This document shows, one piece after another, positions 54,510 to 59,985 of a stretch of 64,000 nt of DNA. The DNA is from Frigoribacterium sp. PhB160 (lineage in GTDB: Bacteria; Actinomycetota; Actinomycetes; Actinomycetales; Microbacteriaceae). The notes below the pieces were generated by a model. The model was given only the letters and a program-made list of their open reading frames with translations, made no database searches and was not told the origin of the DNA. The stretch covers positions 1,031,564-1,095,563 of the forward strand of contig NZ_RKIE01000001.1 of assembly GCF_003751785.1 (NCBI RefSeq), in the 5' to 3' direction. Numbering within the stretch: position 1 is the stretch's first letter; each line of letters opens with the position of its first letter. Both the position numbers and the translations under genes were made by a program.

Positions 54510-56084
54510 ATGGCCACATTCGGAACCCTCTCTGACCGCCTCGCGGAAACGTTCAAGAACCTCCGCAACAAGGGCAAGCTCAGCCCCGCCGACGTCGACG
54601 CCACCGTGCGTGAGATCCGTCGTGCGCTGCTCGACGCCGACGTCGCCTTCGACGTCGTCAAGGCCTTCACCGGCAAGGTCCGTGACCGCGCCCTCGGCGA
54701 CGAGGTCAACAAGGCCCTCAACCCGGCCCAGCAGGTCGTCCAGATCGTCAACGAAGAGCTGGTCGAGATCCTCGGCGGCCAGCAGCGGCGTCTCGAGTTC
54801 GCCAAGAACCCGCCGACCGTCATCATGCTCGCCGGCCTCCAGGGCGCGGGCAAGACGACCCTGGCGGGCAAGCTCGCGAAGTGGCTGGCGAAGGACGGCC
54901 ACACGCCGCTCCTCGTGGCCTGCGACCTCCAGCGGCCGAACGCCGTCCAGCAGCTGCAGGTCGTCGGCGAGCAGGCCGGCGCCGCCGTCTTCGCCCCCGA
55001 GCCGGGCAACGGCGTGGGCGACCCCGTCAAGGTCGCGAAGCAGGCGATCAAGTTCGCCAAGGACAAGGTCTACGACACCGTCATCGTCGACACCGCCGGC
55101 CGCCTCGGCGTCGACGCCGACATGATGAAGCAGGCTGCGAACATCCGGAAGGCGATCGACCCCGACGAGGTGCTCTTCGTCATCGACGCCATGATCGGCC
55201 AGGACGCCGTCGCCACCGCCAAGGCCTTCCAGGCGGGCGTCGACTTCACCGGCGTCGTCCTCTCGAAGCTCGACGGCGACGCCCGCGGCGGCGCGGCCCT
55301 CAGCGTGGCCTCGGTCACCGGCCGACCGATCATGTTCGCGTCGACGGGCGAGACGCTCGACGCGTTCGAGCCGTTCCACCCCGACCGCATGGCCAGCCGC
55401 ATCCTCGACCTCGGCGACATCCTGTCGCTCATCGAGCAGGCGCAGCAGGCCTTCGACGAGGACGAGGCCCGAGCCGTCGCGGAGAAGTTCGCGACGGACT
55501 CCTTCACCCTCGACGACTTCCTCAAGCAGATGCAGCAGCTCCGCAAGATGGGGTCGATCAAGGGCATGCTCGGCATGCTGCCGGGCGCGAAGGGCATGCG
55601 CGAGCAGCTCGAGAACTTCGACGAGCGCGAGATCGTCCGCACCGAGGCCATCATCCAGTCGATGACGCCGCAGGAGCGTGCGCTGCCGAAGCTGCTCAAC
55701 GGCTCGCGGCGCCTGCGCATCGCGCGGGGCTCCGGCATGACCGTCACCGACGTCAACCAGCTCGTGCAGCGGTTCGAGCAGGCCTCGAAGATGATGAAGA
55801 CCGTGGCCAAGGGAGGCGTGCCCCAGGTGCCCGGCATGGGCCCGATCCCCGGGGCCTCGTACGGCGGCAAGAAGGCGCCGGCGAAGAAGAAGGGCTCCAA
55901 GGCGGGCAACCCCGCGAAGCGCGCCGCGCAGAACGCCGCCCTCGCCTCGGGAGCGAAGCCGGCCGGCTCTCCCGCGGGCGGCTCCGGCTCCGGTTTCGGA
56001 CTGGGCGGCGGCGCTCCGGCAGGAGACGCGGCCCCCTCCGCGGAGGAGATGGCCTCGCTCCAGAAGTTCCTCGGACGCGGCTGA
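54510..56084 (+). CDS. ffh: Signal recognition particle protein Ffh
   Basis: 524 residues. N domain, GTPase domain with GLQGAGKT at 109-116, DTAGRLGVD and SKLDGDARGG, and the methionine-rich M domain (about 300-435) with SIKGMLGMLPGAKGMREQL for signal peptide and SRP RNA binding. The last ~80 residues are a low-complexity Ala/Gly/Lys tail. A strong terminator follows, so ffh is not in one transcript with rpsP. Confidence 0.97.
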   Translation: MATFGTLSDRLAETFKNLRNKGKLSPADVDATVREIRRALLDADVAFDVVKAFTGKVRDRALGDEVNKALNPAQQVVQIVNEELVEILGGQQRRLEFAKNPPTVIMLAGLQGAGKTTLAGKLAKWLAKDGHTPLLVACDLQRPNAVQQLQVVGEQAGAAVFAPEPGNGVGDPVKVAKQAIKFAKDKVYDTVIVDTAGRLGVDADMMKQAANIRKAIDPDEVLFVIDAMIGQDAVATAKAFQAGVDFTGVVLSKLDGDARGGAALSVASVTGRPIMFASTGETLDAFEPFHPDRMASRILDLGDILSLIEQAQQAFDEDEARAVAEKFATDSFTLDDFLKQMQQLRKMGSIKGMLGMLPGAKGMREQLENFDEREIVRTEAIIQSMTPQERALPKLLNGSRRLRIARGSGMTVTDVNQLVQRFEQASKMMKTVAKGGVPQVPGMGPIPGASYGGKKAPAKKKGSKAGNPAKRAAQNAALASGAKPAGSPAGGSGSGFGLGGGAPAGDAAPSAEEMASLQKFLGRG

Positions 56085-56105: not shown

Positions 56106-56142
56106 CGAGACGCCCGGTGTGCATGACGCACCGGGCGTCTCG
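56106..56142 (+). terminator. ffh terminator
   Basis: A perfect 14-bp stem (56106-56119 with 56129-56142), 9-nt loop, 21 bp after the ffh stop. Confidence 0.8.
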
Positions 56143-56197: not shown

Positions 56198-56482
56198 ATG
56201 GCAGACCTGACCATCGACGAGGCGTTGCTGGCGATGATCGCCGGCGAGCTCGAGCAGGCCGCGGCCGGTCTCGAGCTCGGGGCCGCGGTGACGAGGCCGC
56301 GCGACCTCGACCTCGGCAGCGAGAGCGTCCGGGCAGCGCTCGACGCGGTCACGACGGAGGCGCGGGCCCGGTCCGAGGCGGCGGTCGCGTCGACCTCCGC
56401 CCTGGCCCGGCTGCCCCGGACGGTGGTCGACGACGTCGCCCGGATCGATCGTGCCCTCGCCGCGGGGGCGGGGGCACCGTGA
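56198..56482 (+). CDS. Small WXG100/EspC-like helical protein
   Basis: 94 residues, predicted almost all helical, with size and Ala-rich pattern of type VII secretion partner proteins, but no WxG motif. GAGGAGGG ribosome-binding site before the ATG and a possible -10 TACTGT at 56151-56156. It overlaps the next gene by 4 bp (GTGA). Its likely role is a chaperone or targeting partner of the following large protein; this is inference from size, fold and position. Confidence 0.65.
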   Translation: MADLTIDEALLAMIAGELEQAAAGLELGAAVTRPRDLDLGSESVRAALDAVTTEARARSEAAVASTSALARLPRTVVDDVARIDRALAAGAGAP

Positions 56483-58224
56483 GGGGCACCGACGCCGACC
56501 CCGGCCGGGGCGACGCCGACTCGGTCTCCCGTGCGGCGACGGCGCGGCGCGAGGCGGGCGACGACGTGCTGCGCCGCGTCATGACGCTCGAGAGCGCGCG
56601 GGCGGAGGTCCGGCCGGGTGCCTGGCACGGCGCGGCCGCCGATTCGTTCCTCGGGGTCCTCGGCCCGGTCGTCGACGACGTGCGCCTGCTCGCGTCGACG
56701 CTCGAGGCCCAGTCGGAGGCGCTGTCGACCTATGCGTCCGCCGTCCGCGACTGCGCAGAGAGGCGCGACGAGCTCGTCCTCCGTCGCCGTGCCGCGGAGG
56801 CGCGGGTGAGGGCTGCGACCGCCGCCCAGGTCACCGAGATGCTCACGACCGGCCCCGCAGCCTCCTGGCCCGGGCTGTCGTCGGCGAGCCCGTCGACCAT
56901 CGGCTCACCCGAGCTGGCGGCGGCCGAGACCGAGCTCGTCGTCGTCGAGAAGCTCTGGGACGAGCTGGTCGCCGACCGCGAGGTCGCCGATCGACGGTGC
57001 TCGGCGGCGCTCGACTCGCGGGAGTGCCGCGGGTCGCTCGCCGTCCTGCGGCTCGACCCCGCCGGGGGAGGAGGGCCCGTGGCCACGGTCGCCGACCTCC
57101 TCGCGGTGCTCGACCAGCTGTCGGCCGGCGACGTCGCCGCCCTGCTCGCGACGCGGCCCGATCTCGTCCGGCTGCTCGACGAGGCCGACGCGCGGGACGT
57201 CGCCCGATGGTGGTCGACCCTCGCCGATCCCCGCGTGGCGGGCCTCGGACCGTCGGGGGCGCAGCTCGCGCTCGTGGCGTCGCTGCCGACCGTCATCGGC
57301 TCGCTGGACGGCGTCCCGGTCGCGGCTCGCGTGCTCGCGAACGCGCGCGTCGCCGAGGAGCGCATCCGCCGCGTCGACGCCCGTCTCGAGCGCCTGGGCC
57401 GTGCGCGACCGCCGCATCCCGATCTCGCGAGCATCCGGGCCGAGCTCCAGGCGGAGAGGGCGTACCTGGAACGAGCGGTCGGACCCGACGCGACGGTGCA
57501 GCTCTACCTCTACGAGCCGGGCGGTCGTCGGGTCGTCGAGGTCGTCGGCGACGTCGGCGCGCGGCCCACCGACGTCGTCACGTACGTCCCCGGCACCTAC
57601 TCCGACCTCGTCGGGTTCTGGCGGGGAGACCCGCAGCAGGTCGTGGGGCATCTGGTGTCCCGGGCGCCAGCTGGTGGCAGTGTCCTCGGGTTCGTCTACA
57701 AGGACGGTCCATTCCCCGGCGAGCGCGGGCCCGTCACCACCTTCGACGTGACCGTGATCCAGGAGGCGAACACGGAGGCGACCGCGCTGCGGGCGGGCGA
57801 GCGCCTGGCCGACTTCCAGGCGGGCCTCGTCGCGACGGGGCAGTTCGACGACAGCTCCGCGACGGCCGTCGGGCACAGCTGGGGACTCGCCAACGTGACG
57901 GCGTCGGAGGTCGCGGGAGCGCGGTACGACCGGGTCGCCTCCCTGGCGGGTGCAGGGATGCCCTCCGCGTGGCAGCCCGCCCCGGAGACGTCGTACGTCG
58001 ACCTGTCGTACAACGACCCGCTCGGGCTGGCACAGCGGGCGGGCGTGGTGTGGCGCGGGAAGGTGCCCCGCGACGACGACGCCTTCCGCCACGTCGGGCT
58101 CTACGACAGCCCGTTCGGCGACGCGCCCTGGCCTGACAACCACGCCCTGGTGGCCCAGGACCGTCCTGAGAACGAGGCAGTGCTCAGGGACCTCCGGGAC
58201 TTCACTTTCGGGGGCTCGAGGTGA
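56479..58224 (+). CDS. Secreted-type alpha/beta hydrolase with WxG-like N-terminus (DUF1023-like)
   Basis: 581 residues. N-terminal ~180: helical, with WHG at 49-51 (WxG-like turn) and long charged helices. Middle: helices with no known fold. C-terminal ~190: an alpha/beta hydrolase resembling DUF1023, with nucleophile Ser467 in GHSWG and a possible catalytic His555 (DNHALV). No signal peptide, which fits export by a type VII route. Middle gene of a tightly overlapping three-gene set. Esterase or lipase activity is probable; a toxin role is inferred. Confidence 0.75.
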   Translation: MRGTDADPGRGDADSVSRAATARREAGDDVLRRVMTLESARAEVRPGAWHGAAADSFLGVLGPVVDDVRLLASTLEAQSEALSTYASAVRDCAERRDELVLRRRAAEARVRAATAAQVTEMLTTGPAASWPGLSSASPSTIGSPELAAAETELVVVEKLWDELVADREVADRRCSAALDSRECRGSLAVLRLDPAGGGGPVATVADLLAVLDQLSAGDVAALLATRPDLVRLLDEADARDVARWWSTLADPRVAGLGPSGAQLALVASLPTVIGSLDGVPVAARVLANARVAEERIRRVDARLERLGRARPPHPDLASIRAELQAERAYLERAVGPDATVQLYLYEPGGRRVVEVVGDVGARPTDVVTYVPGTYSDLVGFWRGDPQQVVGHLVSRAPAGGSVLGFVYKDGPFPGERGPVTTFDVTVIQEANTEATALRAGERLADFQAGLVATGQFDDSSATAVGHSWGLANVTASEVAGARYDRVASLAGAGMPSAWQPAPETSYVDLSYNDPLGLAQRAGVVWRGKVPRDDDAFRHVGLYDSPFGDAPWPDNHALVAQDRPENEAVLRDLRDFTFGGSR

Positions 58225-58712
58225 GGGGCCCCGTCGCGGCGGGGTGGGTCTGCGCCGTCGTGCTCCTGGTGGGGTGCTCAGCCCGTGCCGCGGACGTCGT
58301 GGACGGGATGACCGTCGAGGATGCCAAGTCCATGACCATGGCCGTCGAGGACGACGTCGTGGCCAGCGTGGACCCGGCGGTCCTGGGCGAGATCCATCAA
58401 GGCGAGACGGGAATCCTCCTGTCCTGCTCGACGGAGAGCCATCGTTGGGCCGGCGGCGTCGACTTCTTCGTCGAGGACGGCACCGACATGCTCGAGCTGC
58501 TGCGGGACATCGAGGGGAGCTTCTCGGCTCGAGACGACTTCTCGGTCGATCGCGAGCTGGACATCAACGAGAACGAGACCCTGACCTTGAGGGGGCCCGA
58601 CGGCCTGGTCCTGACTGTCTCCCAGTGGCGTCAGGAGGGCTTCATCGGCGTCCTGTCGTTCTCGCCGTGCTTCGAGCTGCCGGAGGGGACGTACCCGGGA
58701 GGGGACTGGTGA
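58221..58712 (+). CDS. Small lipoprotein of unknown function (possible immunity protein)
   Basis: 163 residues. Short signal peptide with lipobox LLVGC (Cys19), an acidic mature domain with two further cysteines (LLSCST, SPCFEL). GTG start overlapping the hydrolase stop by 4 bp. Base composition is AT-richer than neighbours (codons CAA, GGA, ACT, ATC mixed), hinting at transfer. A lipoprotein directly after a secreted lipase-like gene would fit immunity at the outer face of the membrane. Confidence 0.7.
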   Translation: MRGPVAAGWVCAVVLLVGCSARAADVVDGMTVEDAKSMTMAVEDDVVASVDPAVLGEIHQGETGILLSCSTESHRWAGGVDFFVEDGTDMLELLRDIEGSFSARDDFSVDRELDINENETLTLRGPDGLVLTVSQWRQEGFIGVLSFSPCFELPEGTYPGGDW

Positions 58713-58733: not shown

Positions 58734-59879
58734 TCAGTCGGCGGCGGTGATGCCCTCGCGGAGTTCCCGGACGAGCGAGGCGACCACGGGGCGGAGCTCG
58801 CCGCCGTGCTGCGCCGCGACGCGCAGCTGCCGCTGGTAGCTGGCGCCGTAGCCGATGATGGTGCCGACGGAGTGGAGCTCCTCGACGCAGCCGAGCCGGG
58901 CGGCCGCGGGCTCGAGGCGCACGAGCAGGTCGCGCAGGTCGTCCGTGACGAGCCGCTCGTCGCCGTCGGCGTCCTGGATGACGATCGCGTCCATGCCGTA
59001 CCGGGCCGCGCGCCACTTGTTCTCGCGGACGAACCACGGCTGCATCCTGCCGAGCTCCTCGCCGCGGTCGAGTCGCTCCGACATGTCGTCGACGAGGCAC
59101 TGCACGAGCGCGGCCATCGCGCCGACCTCGTCGAAGGTGGCGATCCCGTCGAACACCCGCGTCTCGAGCGTGCCCCACTTCGGTGACGGCCGGAGGTCCC
59201 AGCGCAGCTCGCTGTGGTCGTCGATGACGCCGGTGTGGGTCATGTCGGCGACCATGCGCTCGTAGCCGCCCCACGAGTCGAACTGCGGGGGGAGGCCCGC
59301 GGTCGGCAGCTGCTGGAACATCAGCGCGCGGTTGGAGGCGTAGCCCGTCTCCTCGCCGACCCAGAACGGGCTCGACGCGGTGAGCGCCTGGAAGTGCGGG
59401 AGGTAGGTGAGCAGCCCGTTGAGGATCGGCAGCACCTTGTCGCGGGAGTCGATGCCGACGTGCACGTGGACGCCCCAGATCATCATCTGCCGGCCCCACC
59501 AGCGGGTCCGGTCGATGAGGGTCGCGTAGCGCTCCTTGTCGGGCGTGACCTCCTGGTCCACGTAGCGGCTGTACGGGTGCGTGCCCGCGCACATGAGGTC
59601 GGCCCCCAGCACGGCGGCCGGGCCGTGGACGGCGTCGATCGTGCCCCGCAGGTCGTCCACGGCGTCGCGGACACGGTGGTGGACCCCCGTCACCACCTCG
59701 ACGGTGTTGGTCAGGAGCTCGCCGGTCAGGCGCTCGGGCCCGCCCTCGTTGAGGTGCGCGAGGTCGGCGAGGATCGCGGGCGCGTGCGGCGTGAGCTCGC
59801 CGGTCTCGCGGTCGGTGAGGGCCAGCTCCCACTCGATCCCGAGCGTCGATCGCTCGGAGCTGCTGAAGTCGATCCGCAT
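58734..59879 (-). CDS. Carboxylate-amine ligase (glutamate-cysteine ligase 2 family, YbdK)
   Basis: 381 residues. GCS2-type fold with GIEWELALTDRETGEL (about 14-29), MCAGTHPYSRY and GVHVHVGID, all family signatures. Makes gamma-glutamyl amide bonds with ATP; in actinobacteria the exact substrates are often unsure, and mycothiol rather than glutathione is the main thiol. ATG at 59879. Divergent from rpsP. Confidence 0.9.
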   Translation of the reverse strand: MRIDFSSSERSTLGIEWELALTDRETGELTPHAPAILADLAHLNEGGPERLTGELLTNTVEVVTGVHHRVRDAVDDLRGTIDAVHGPAAVLGADLMCAGTHPYSRYVDQEVTPDKERYATLIDRTRWWGRQMMIWGVHVHVGIDSRDKVLPILNGLLTYLPHFQALTASSPFWVGEETGYASNRALMFQQLPTAGLPPQFDSWGGYERMVADMTHTGVIDDHSELRWDLRPSPKWGTLETRVFDGIATFDEVGAMAALVQCLVDDMSERLDRGEELGRMQPWFVRENKWRAARYGMDAIVIQDADGDERLVTDDLRDLLVRLEPAAARLGCVEELHSVGTIIGYGASYQRQLRVAAQHGGELRPVVASLVRELREGITAAD

Positions 59880-59985
59880 GGTGCCTGCCCTCCGCTCGGC
59901 ACGGGTCCGCGCCGGGCCCATCCTGGCAGCCACGTCGCGTCGACGACCGTCCGGCGTCGACCCGTGACGGACACGGCACGGGGGA

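What the first reader, a model, noticed from the sequence alone, without database searches (positions are those of the whole stretch)
56198..58712. Three-gene cassette resembling a type VII-secreted lipase with partner and lipoprotein immunity
Three genes overlap by 4 bp each: a 94-residue helical protein, a 581-residue protein with a WxG-like turn (49-51) and a C-terminal alpha/beta hydrolase (GHSWG, Ser467), and a small lipoprotein (Cys19). The gene plan parallels the staphylococcal TslA lipase with TilA lipoprotein immunity, but the domain order is different and the proteins are not obviously the same families. The cassette is dropped into the conserved ffh-rpsP block, and the lipoprotein gene has AT-richer codons. 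A toxin/immunity role is inference, and no type VII secretion genes lie in the window.
Basis: partly seen in the sequence, partly recalled or inferred. Interest (0 to 1): 0.75.

Follow-up and report, generated by a model that had tools for sequence, protein, structure and literature searches.

The report
Predicted secreted lipase toxin with immunity
Three overlapping genes in a Frigoribacterium genome look like a bacterial weapon, a secreted fat-splitting enzyme with its export partner and a membrane-anchored protein that would protect the producer, and relatives appear to swap and stockpile such enzyme and protector pairs.

The parts
56198..56482 (+). Gene 1: 94-aa small protein, putative export partner
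   Evidence: homologues lie directly upstream of the hydrolase in Frigoribacterium and, by profile at E<=0.01, in 13 of 31 non-Frigoribacterium loci; 2 of 15 family members match PF10824 EspC, best E 3.1e-4; no Pfam match of its own
56479..58224 (+). Gene 2: 581-aa predicted toxin, WXG100 domain plus alpha/beta-hydrolase
56515..56850 (+). WXG100-type helical hairpin of gene 2 (helices at residues 13-44 and 52-124, WHG turn at 49-51)
   Evidence: AlphaFold model; EsxA profile match over residues 11-93, E 5.8e-5; 12 of 18 homologues match PF06013 at E<=1
57493..58221 (+). Alpha/beta-hydrolase domain of gene 2, about residues 339-581, with Ser467, Asp513 and His555
57940..58221 (+). Tail of gene 2 (residue 488 onward, includes Asp513 and His555); relatives hold orphan copies of this part
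58221..58712 (+). Gene 3: 163-aa lipoprotein (lipobox Cys19), putative immunity protein
   Evidence: family member downstream of the hydrolase in 43 of 44 loci; predicted fold
56106..56142 (.). Strong hairpin between ffh and the cassette, 16-bp stem, terminator-like but without a T run
54510..56084 (+). ffh, upstream neighbour that marks the insertion site
58734..59933 (-). Glutamate-cysteine ligase gene (called gcs2 here), downstream neighbour that marks the insertion site

Best explanation
The three genes encode a polymorphic toxin-immunity cassette. Gene 2 is an alpha/beta-hydrolase toxin, probably a lipase or phospholipase, whose N-terminal WXG100-type hairpin, together with the small gene 1 protein, forms the signal that a type VII secretion ATPase encoded elsewhere in the genome recognises. 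Exported enzyme attacks membrane lipids of competing bacteria from outside. Gene 3 is a lipoprotein on the outer face of the producer's own membrane that binds the catalytic domain and protects the producer and its kin. Shown here by computation: gene structure, domains, conserved catalytic residues, T7-type ATPase genes in the genome, T7SS linkage in some relatives, lipoprotein-gene arrays, orphan tail plus lipoprotein modules, and joint replacement of catalytic half and lipoprotein. Inferred: secretion, lipid substrate, binding, toxicity and direction against bacteria.
For: Domains and folds. Ser467, Asp513 and His555 invariant in the 39 rows aligned. T7-type ATPase genes in the own genome, one near a WXG100 gene; T7 ATPase within the fetched flanks in 8 of 44 named loci. 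Lipoprotein downstream in 43 of 44 loci; 17 of 44 loci hold two or more profile hits. Orphan tails, each followed by a lipoprotein, in 4 of 16 Frigoribacterium genomes (5 fragments) and in two other genera, one with the order BODY-TAIL-LIPO-TAIL-LIPO. Among 18 main cassettes tail and lipoprotein identities correlate at 0.90 (partial on body 0.65; body on tail 0.05); in the seven-genome clade at 0.98, reached by 4 of 5040 relabellings (partial on body 0.97; body and lipoprotein 0.66, reached by 7 of 5040). G006 is a mosaic: against G005 93-99% up to about nt 1000 of the hydrolase gene, 52-81% to about nt 2300, 89% in one window, then 97-100%. Against the own genome's proteins, der of relatives is 95.6-99.0% identical and cassette proteins about 22-52%. 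The window copy is an extra one at an otherwise empty site, outside the genus's der-locus clade in the tree.
Against: No secretion, activity, binding or toxicity data. No YxxxD/E motif in gene 1 or in the first 180 residues of gene 2. The window protein's own Pfam matches are below cut-off (WXG100 E 0.065, PPE E 0.032). Over 39 diverse loci the lipoprotein tracks residues 255-487 (partial 0.49) more than the tail (partial 0.29, 0 of 2000 relabellings as high). In orphan modules tail and lipoprotein do not always keep pace: the G004 orphan tail is 87% to the G006 tail, but its lipoprotein only 58%. Linked genes can be replaced together without touching each other. The T7 ATPase type is not constant: G007 and G013 lack the type found beside the cassettes of Cryobacterium and Curtobacterium. 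A der-locus copy in all 16 genomes would also fit a housekeeping role.
Confidence: 0.78

Rival explanations
1. A housekeeping envelope esterase or lipase with a lipoprotein that serves as its foldase, anchor or regulator, not a weapon.
For: The der-locus copy is present in 16 of 16 genomes of the genus; gene pairs that work together also co-vary; no toxicity data.
Against: Orphan tail plus lipoprotein modules, tandem lipoprotein arrays and joint allele replacement; divergence far above that of the flanking genes; only 5 of 396 genomes drawn from the order, the own included, match at E<=1e-30 (three candidates scored per genome).
Confidence: 0.12
2. A secreted effector aimed at plant, fungal or protist cells, with the lipoprotein only protecting the producer's own lipids.
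For: Lipid substrates are shared by all cells; some members of the genus seem to come from leaves, judged only from strain names such as Leaf8, Leaf186 and Leaf263.
Against: Tandem and orphan lipoprotein genes and allele exchange fit kin discrimination between bacteria better.
Confidence: 0.07
3. A toxin-immunity pair that leaves the cell by another route, with the WXG100 hairpin serving only as a dimerisation domain.
Against: WXG100 domain and partner gene; T7 ATPase genes beside the cassette in 8 of 44 named loci; a long T7-type ATPase in 16 of 16 genomes.
Confidence: 0.07

Closest known systems
TslA/TilA of Staphylococcus aureus (PMC10730906; abstract, sections 6 and 9 and passages seen)
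   Same: T7-exported serine-hydrolase toxin, small helical partner, lipoprotein immunity with variable copy number, polymorphic region, further copies at other loci.
   Different: TslA has the lipase N-terminal and the targeting domain C-terminal, two partners, and DUF576 immunity. Here targeting is N-terminal, there is one small gene upstream, the hydrolase is DUF1023-like, and the window lipoprotein matches no Pfam family.
Tox-ABhydrolase-3 of Zhang et al. 2012 (PMC3482391; passages seen)
   Same: Alpha/beta-hydrolase with GHSxG as a polymorphic toxin; T7SS (WXG) delivery and Actinobacteria are listed there.
   Different: Listed immunity families are Imm66 and Imm69; neither is among the Pfam matches of the lipoprotein family (one of 31 members has a weak Imm74 match, E 0.11). 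Whether the hydrolase belongs to that family could not be tested.
Abhydrolase_8 (DUF1023, PF06259)
   Same: The own genome's member L040 aligns with gene 2 over residues 232-500, hhalign probability 97%, E 1e-10.
   Different: Gene 2 itself has no PF06259 match at E<=10.
DUF4853 protein ACTODO_00621, DcrB, and LppA of Mycobacterium tuberculosis (folds)
   Different: 15, 5 and 13% identity, so the fold is shared with unrelated-looking proteins; one of 31 family members matches the Pfam LppA model, at E 0.43. No paper in the library holds the word DUF4853.
Tandem T7 immunity genes esaG and tipC (PMC9484751; abstract seen)
   Same: Strings of non-identical immunity genes that evolve by recombination.
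   Different: That work concerns firmicutes, a nuclease and a lipid II phosphatase; here orphan toxin tails stand between the lipoprotein genes.

Membership tests
TslA/TilA | N-terminal lipase and C-terminal LXG-like targeting domain (reverse order) | tested here: not met
   WXG100 hairpin at residues 13-124, hydrolase at about 339-581
TslA/TilA | DUF576-family immunity lipoprotein | tested here: not met
   Pfam scans of the window lipoprotein (E<=10) and of 31 family members (E<=1) list no DUF576
TslA/TilA | Two small helical partners downstream of the toxin | tested here: not met
   One small gene, upstream
TslA/TilA | Phospholipase A activity inhibited by the lipoprotein | not testable with these tools
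   Needs purified proteins
Polymorphic toxin system | Conserved trafficking domain with an exchangeable toxin part and linked immunity gene | tested here: met
   Mosaic of G006 against G005 and G010; lipoprotein downstream in 43 of 44 loci. That the lipoprotein is an immunity protein is inferred.
Polymorphic toxin system | Orphan toxin-tip plus immunity modules | tested here: met
   Five fragments in L041, L043, L046 (two) and L047; L120 and L121 in two other genera; none seen in the window itself
Polymorphic toxin system | Toxicity neutralised by the cognate immunity protein | not testable with these tools
   Needs an expression test
WXG100-type T7SS substrate | WXG helical hairpin | tested here: met
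   WHG 49-51 between helices 13-44 and 52-124; EsxA profile match E 5.8e-5; 12 of 18 homologues match PF06013 at E<=1; the window protein alone is below cut-off
WXG100-type T7SS substrate | YxxxD/E export motif (recalled as typical of mycobacterial substrates) | tested here: not met
   None in gene 1 or in residues 1-180 of gene 2
WXG100-type T7SS substrate | T7SS ATPase and WXG100 protein in the genome | tested here: met
   WXG100 at G000 C2 109155-109415, ATPases at C2 112946-117466 and C2 206304-210680
WXG100-type T7SS substrate | ATPase-dependent secretion | not testable with these tools
   Needs a deletion strain
Abhydrolase_8 / DUF1023 (PF06259) | Score above Pfam's cut-off | tested here: not met
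   No match at E<=10
Abhydrolase_8 / DUF1023 (PF06259) | Homology to a PF06259 member beyond the hydrolase core | tested here: inconclusive
   hhalign with L040 97%, E 1e-10, including the helical region before the core; one template only
Tox-ABhydrolase-3 | Membership of that hydrolase family | not testable with these tools
   The 2012 profile is not held; GHSxG is present
LppA / DUF4853 lipoproteins | Same fold | tested here: inconclusive

The most novel reading that the evidence does not exclude
Micrococcales carry an unrecognised type VII antibacterial arsenal in which the catalytic half of a DUF1023-like lipase and its lipoprotein antidote are exchanged as one block between species, while superseded tips stay behind with their antidotes as orphan modules. 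The antidote's LppA/DUF4853-like fold would then be a general actinobacterial answer to secreted lipase toxins, so that many lipoproteins of unknown role in this phylum are immunity proteins.
Probability: 0.2. Interest if true: 0.85.

Novelty: new variant of a known kind. Interest (0 to 1): 0.64.

Why it matters
The papers on type VII toxins that kill bacteria that I read or saw listed mostly concern Bacillota, and the searches made here (lists partly capped) showed no report of a T7 lipase toxin with lipoprotein immunity in Microbacteriaceae or Micrococcaceae. If right, it extends this weapon to actinobacteria of these families, shows convergence on lipase plus lipoprotein antidote with opposite domain order, and offers natural mosaics (G006 against G005 and G010) in which specificity can be tested directly.

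Tried and rejected
Considered and rejected: membership of TslA/TilA (order and families differ); plasmid or virus cargo (no match at E<=1e-5 in 72,556 plasmid records; 30 candidate stretches in IMG/VR, none confirmed); duplication of the own der-locus copy (the window copy falls outside that clade, although its branch is long, no starred group holds it and its place is unsure); AT-rich codons as a sign of recent gain (weak). Gene 1 against a canonical WXG100 protein of the same genome gave only a 3.9% hhalign probability, so its link to type VII partners rests on position and on 2 of 15 EspC matches. In the wide set the lipoprotein follows the body more than the tail, so a tail-only specificity claim was dropped; a first run of that test (26 rows, partial tail-lipoprotein 0.63, body-lipoprotein 0.27) had lost 19 of 44 loci to a motif filter and was replaced, which uses the 38 loci of alignment A4 plus the window (6 of 44 loci left out of A4: L077, L084, L085, L113, L114, L115). 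EccCb matches at E<=0.001 also occur in 8 of 14 control genomes, so presence of a T7 ATPase is judged on the long matches and on cut-offs. Foldseek on the two models was not run; only the VIA-align look was. The type-38 ATPase query across the genus gave no usable answer. The gene caller used in Python is home-made and misplaces some starts, so lipoprotein and small-gene counts rest on profile searches of stop-to-stop frames; those counts are profile hits on the hydrolase's strand anywhere in the fetched locus, partial and distant ones included (for example one upstream hit in L082, one 6.7 kb away in L093, fragments in L099). The 44 loci come from a pattern search that favours hydrolases with GHSWG. 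A weak edge-of-locus ATPase hit in L090 was not counted among the 8.

Full report
Observation. The claim of AT-richer lipoprotein codons is weak. The window lies at C1 1031564-1095563 of a 3.34-Mb, four-contig genome. Named contigs found have the same lengths as contigs of the unnamed genus genomes and are Frigoribacterium, hence the genus. The names ffh, ftsY, rpsP (S16), der, cmk and glutamate-cysteine ligase (gcs2 here) were confirmed with NCBIfam; the conserved gene on the far side of the der-locus cassette has no NCBIfam match.

Distribution. All 16 genomes of the genus have a gene 2 homologue. In 15 of 15 relatives and in the own genome one lies between der and a second conserved gene; against the own genome's proteins, der of relatives is 95.6-99.0% identical and the second gene 78-89%, whereas cassette proteins were about 22-52%. 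Within a clade of seven genomes the hydrolase bodies are 79-95% identical. The window copy sits between ffh and gcs2; in 14 of the 15 relatives the ffh-rpsP gap is 1466-1595 nt, one gene (gcs2) is called inside and no cassette protein matches there, and the fifteenth (G001) reads N there. A tree of 40 rows puts 12 Frigoribacterium der-locus rows, the own one included, in one clade (99/99) without the window copy, whose long branch is otherwise not placed; the second copy of F. endophyticum groups with a Microbacterium (100/100). In a draw of 396 genomes from the order, 5 match at E<=1e-30, the own included. At the looser E<=1e-10 a profile hits 123 of 249 genomes of the family, but many of the listed hits cover only the middle region, about positions 190-380.

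Toxin-immunity signs. In 43 of 44 loci fetched from named genomes a lipoprotein of this family lies downstream; 17 hold two or more profile hits, 8 three or more, 4 four, partial hits included. Short orphan copies of the hydrolase tail stand in front of extra lipoproteins: five in 4 of 16 Frigoribacterium genomes (E 4e-49 to 1e-6; one contains stops), and in two other genera with tail E-values of 1.6e-42 and 1e-18. Possible 27-codon remnants lie between tandem lipoproteins of a Paenarthrobacter (E 1.8e-6) and an Arthrobacter (E 0.0047, weak). Among 18 main cassettes of Frigoribacterium, tail and lipoprotein identities correlate at 0.90 and body and lipoprotein at 0.82; partial values are 0.65 and 0.05. 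In the clade of seven they are 0.98 (4 of 5040 relabellings as high) and 0.66 (7 of 5040). In 150-nt windows G006 is 93-99% identical to G005 from upstream to about nt 1000 of the gene, 52-81% to about nt 2300, 89% in one window, and 97-100% beyond; against G010 it is 77-89% before and 82-92% from about nt 1090 on. So catalytic half and lipoprotein were replaced together. Against a narrow reading: over 39 loci the lipoprotein follows residues 255-487 (partial 0.49) more than the tail (0.29), and one orphan pair is out of step.

Type VII link. The own genome has a WXG100 gene (58.3 bits, cut-off 27.3) near an FtsK-type ATPase gene on C2, and a second locus with an FHA-FtsK ATPase, a Ser/Thr kinase and a 93-aa protein with a WDG motif but no Pfam WXG100 match. 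The second resembles the T7SSd plan (ATPase with FHA domain, kinase, WXG100) of PMC11217815 (passages seen), whose abstract names Olsenella and Bifidobacterium. The canonical EccCb cut-off is passed in 8 of 16 genomes, not in the own one; weaker matches occur in 8 of 14 control genomes as well. An ATPase like that of locus L037 (type 37, over 1100 bits) occurs in 14 of 16 genomes; G007 and G013 have only less similar long ATPases (451 and 237 bits). In 8 of 44 named loci a T7 ATPase lies within the fetched flanks of the cassette: two Cryobacterium, two Curtobacterium, one Microbacteriaceae without genus name and three Leucobacter. The first five are nearer to type 37 and carry the gene 1 family; the Leucobacter ones are nearer to the second type. 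Which ATPase serves the window cassette is open; C2 109-117 kb is the better guess.

Comparison and verdict. It works like TslA/TilA (PMC10730906: abstract, sections 6 and 9, passages) but is not a member. Zhang et al. 2012 (PMC3482391, passages) already listed alpha/beta-hydrolase toxins with WXG delivery in Actinobacteria, so the kind is known. New here, as far as searches show (listings, some capped), are the family, the lipoprotein antidote, the orphan modules and the mosaic replacement. I rate it a new variant of a known kind.

Noticed in passing
L039 6630-8396: The own der-locus cassette is followed by three tandem lipoprotein-family genes, the middle one without an obvious lipobox start.
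   Followed up: partly
L055 8569-10275: In G012 the der locus holds two hydrolase genes in tandem; the first has GHGWG instead of GHSWG and looks degenerate.
   Followed up: partly
L037 9799-11019: A 407-aa protein with a T7SS_signal match below cut-off (PF21725, E 3.3e-5) lies between a WXG100 gene and the T7 ATPase: a possible second T7 substrate.
   Followed up: no
L038 1341-12904: Locus with FHA-FtsK ATPase, Ser/Thr kinase and a 93-aa protein with a WDG motif, resembling the T7SSd plan.
   Followed up: partly
L040 6526-8079: DUF1023 (PF06259) hydrolase of 517 aa, a distant relative of gene 2.
   Followed up: partly
L059 1704-3541: 9 of 15 relatives have about 1.8-2.0 kb between ftsY and ffh, against 56 nt in the window; content not identified.
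   Followed up: no
L109 6459-9725: Second cassette of F. endophyticum, grouped with a Microbacterium copy, suggesting gain from outside the genus.
   Followed up: partly
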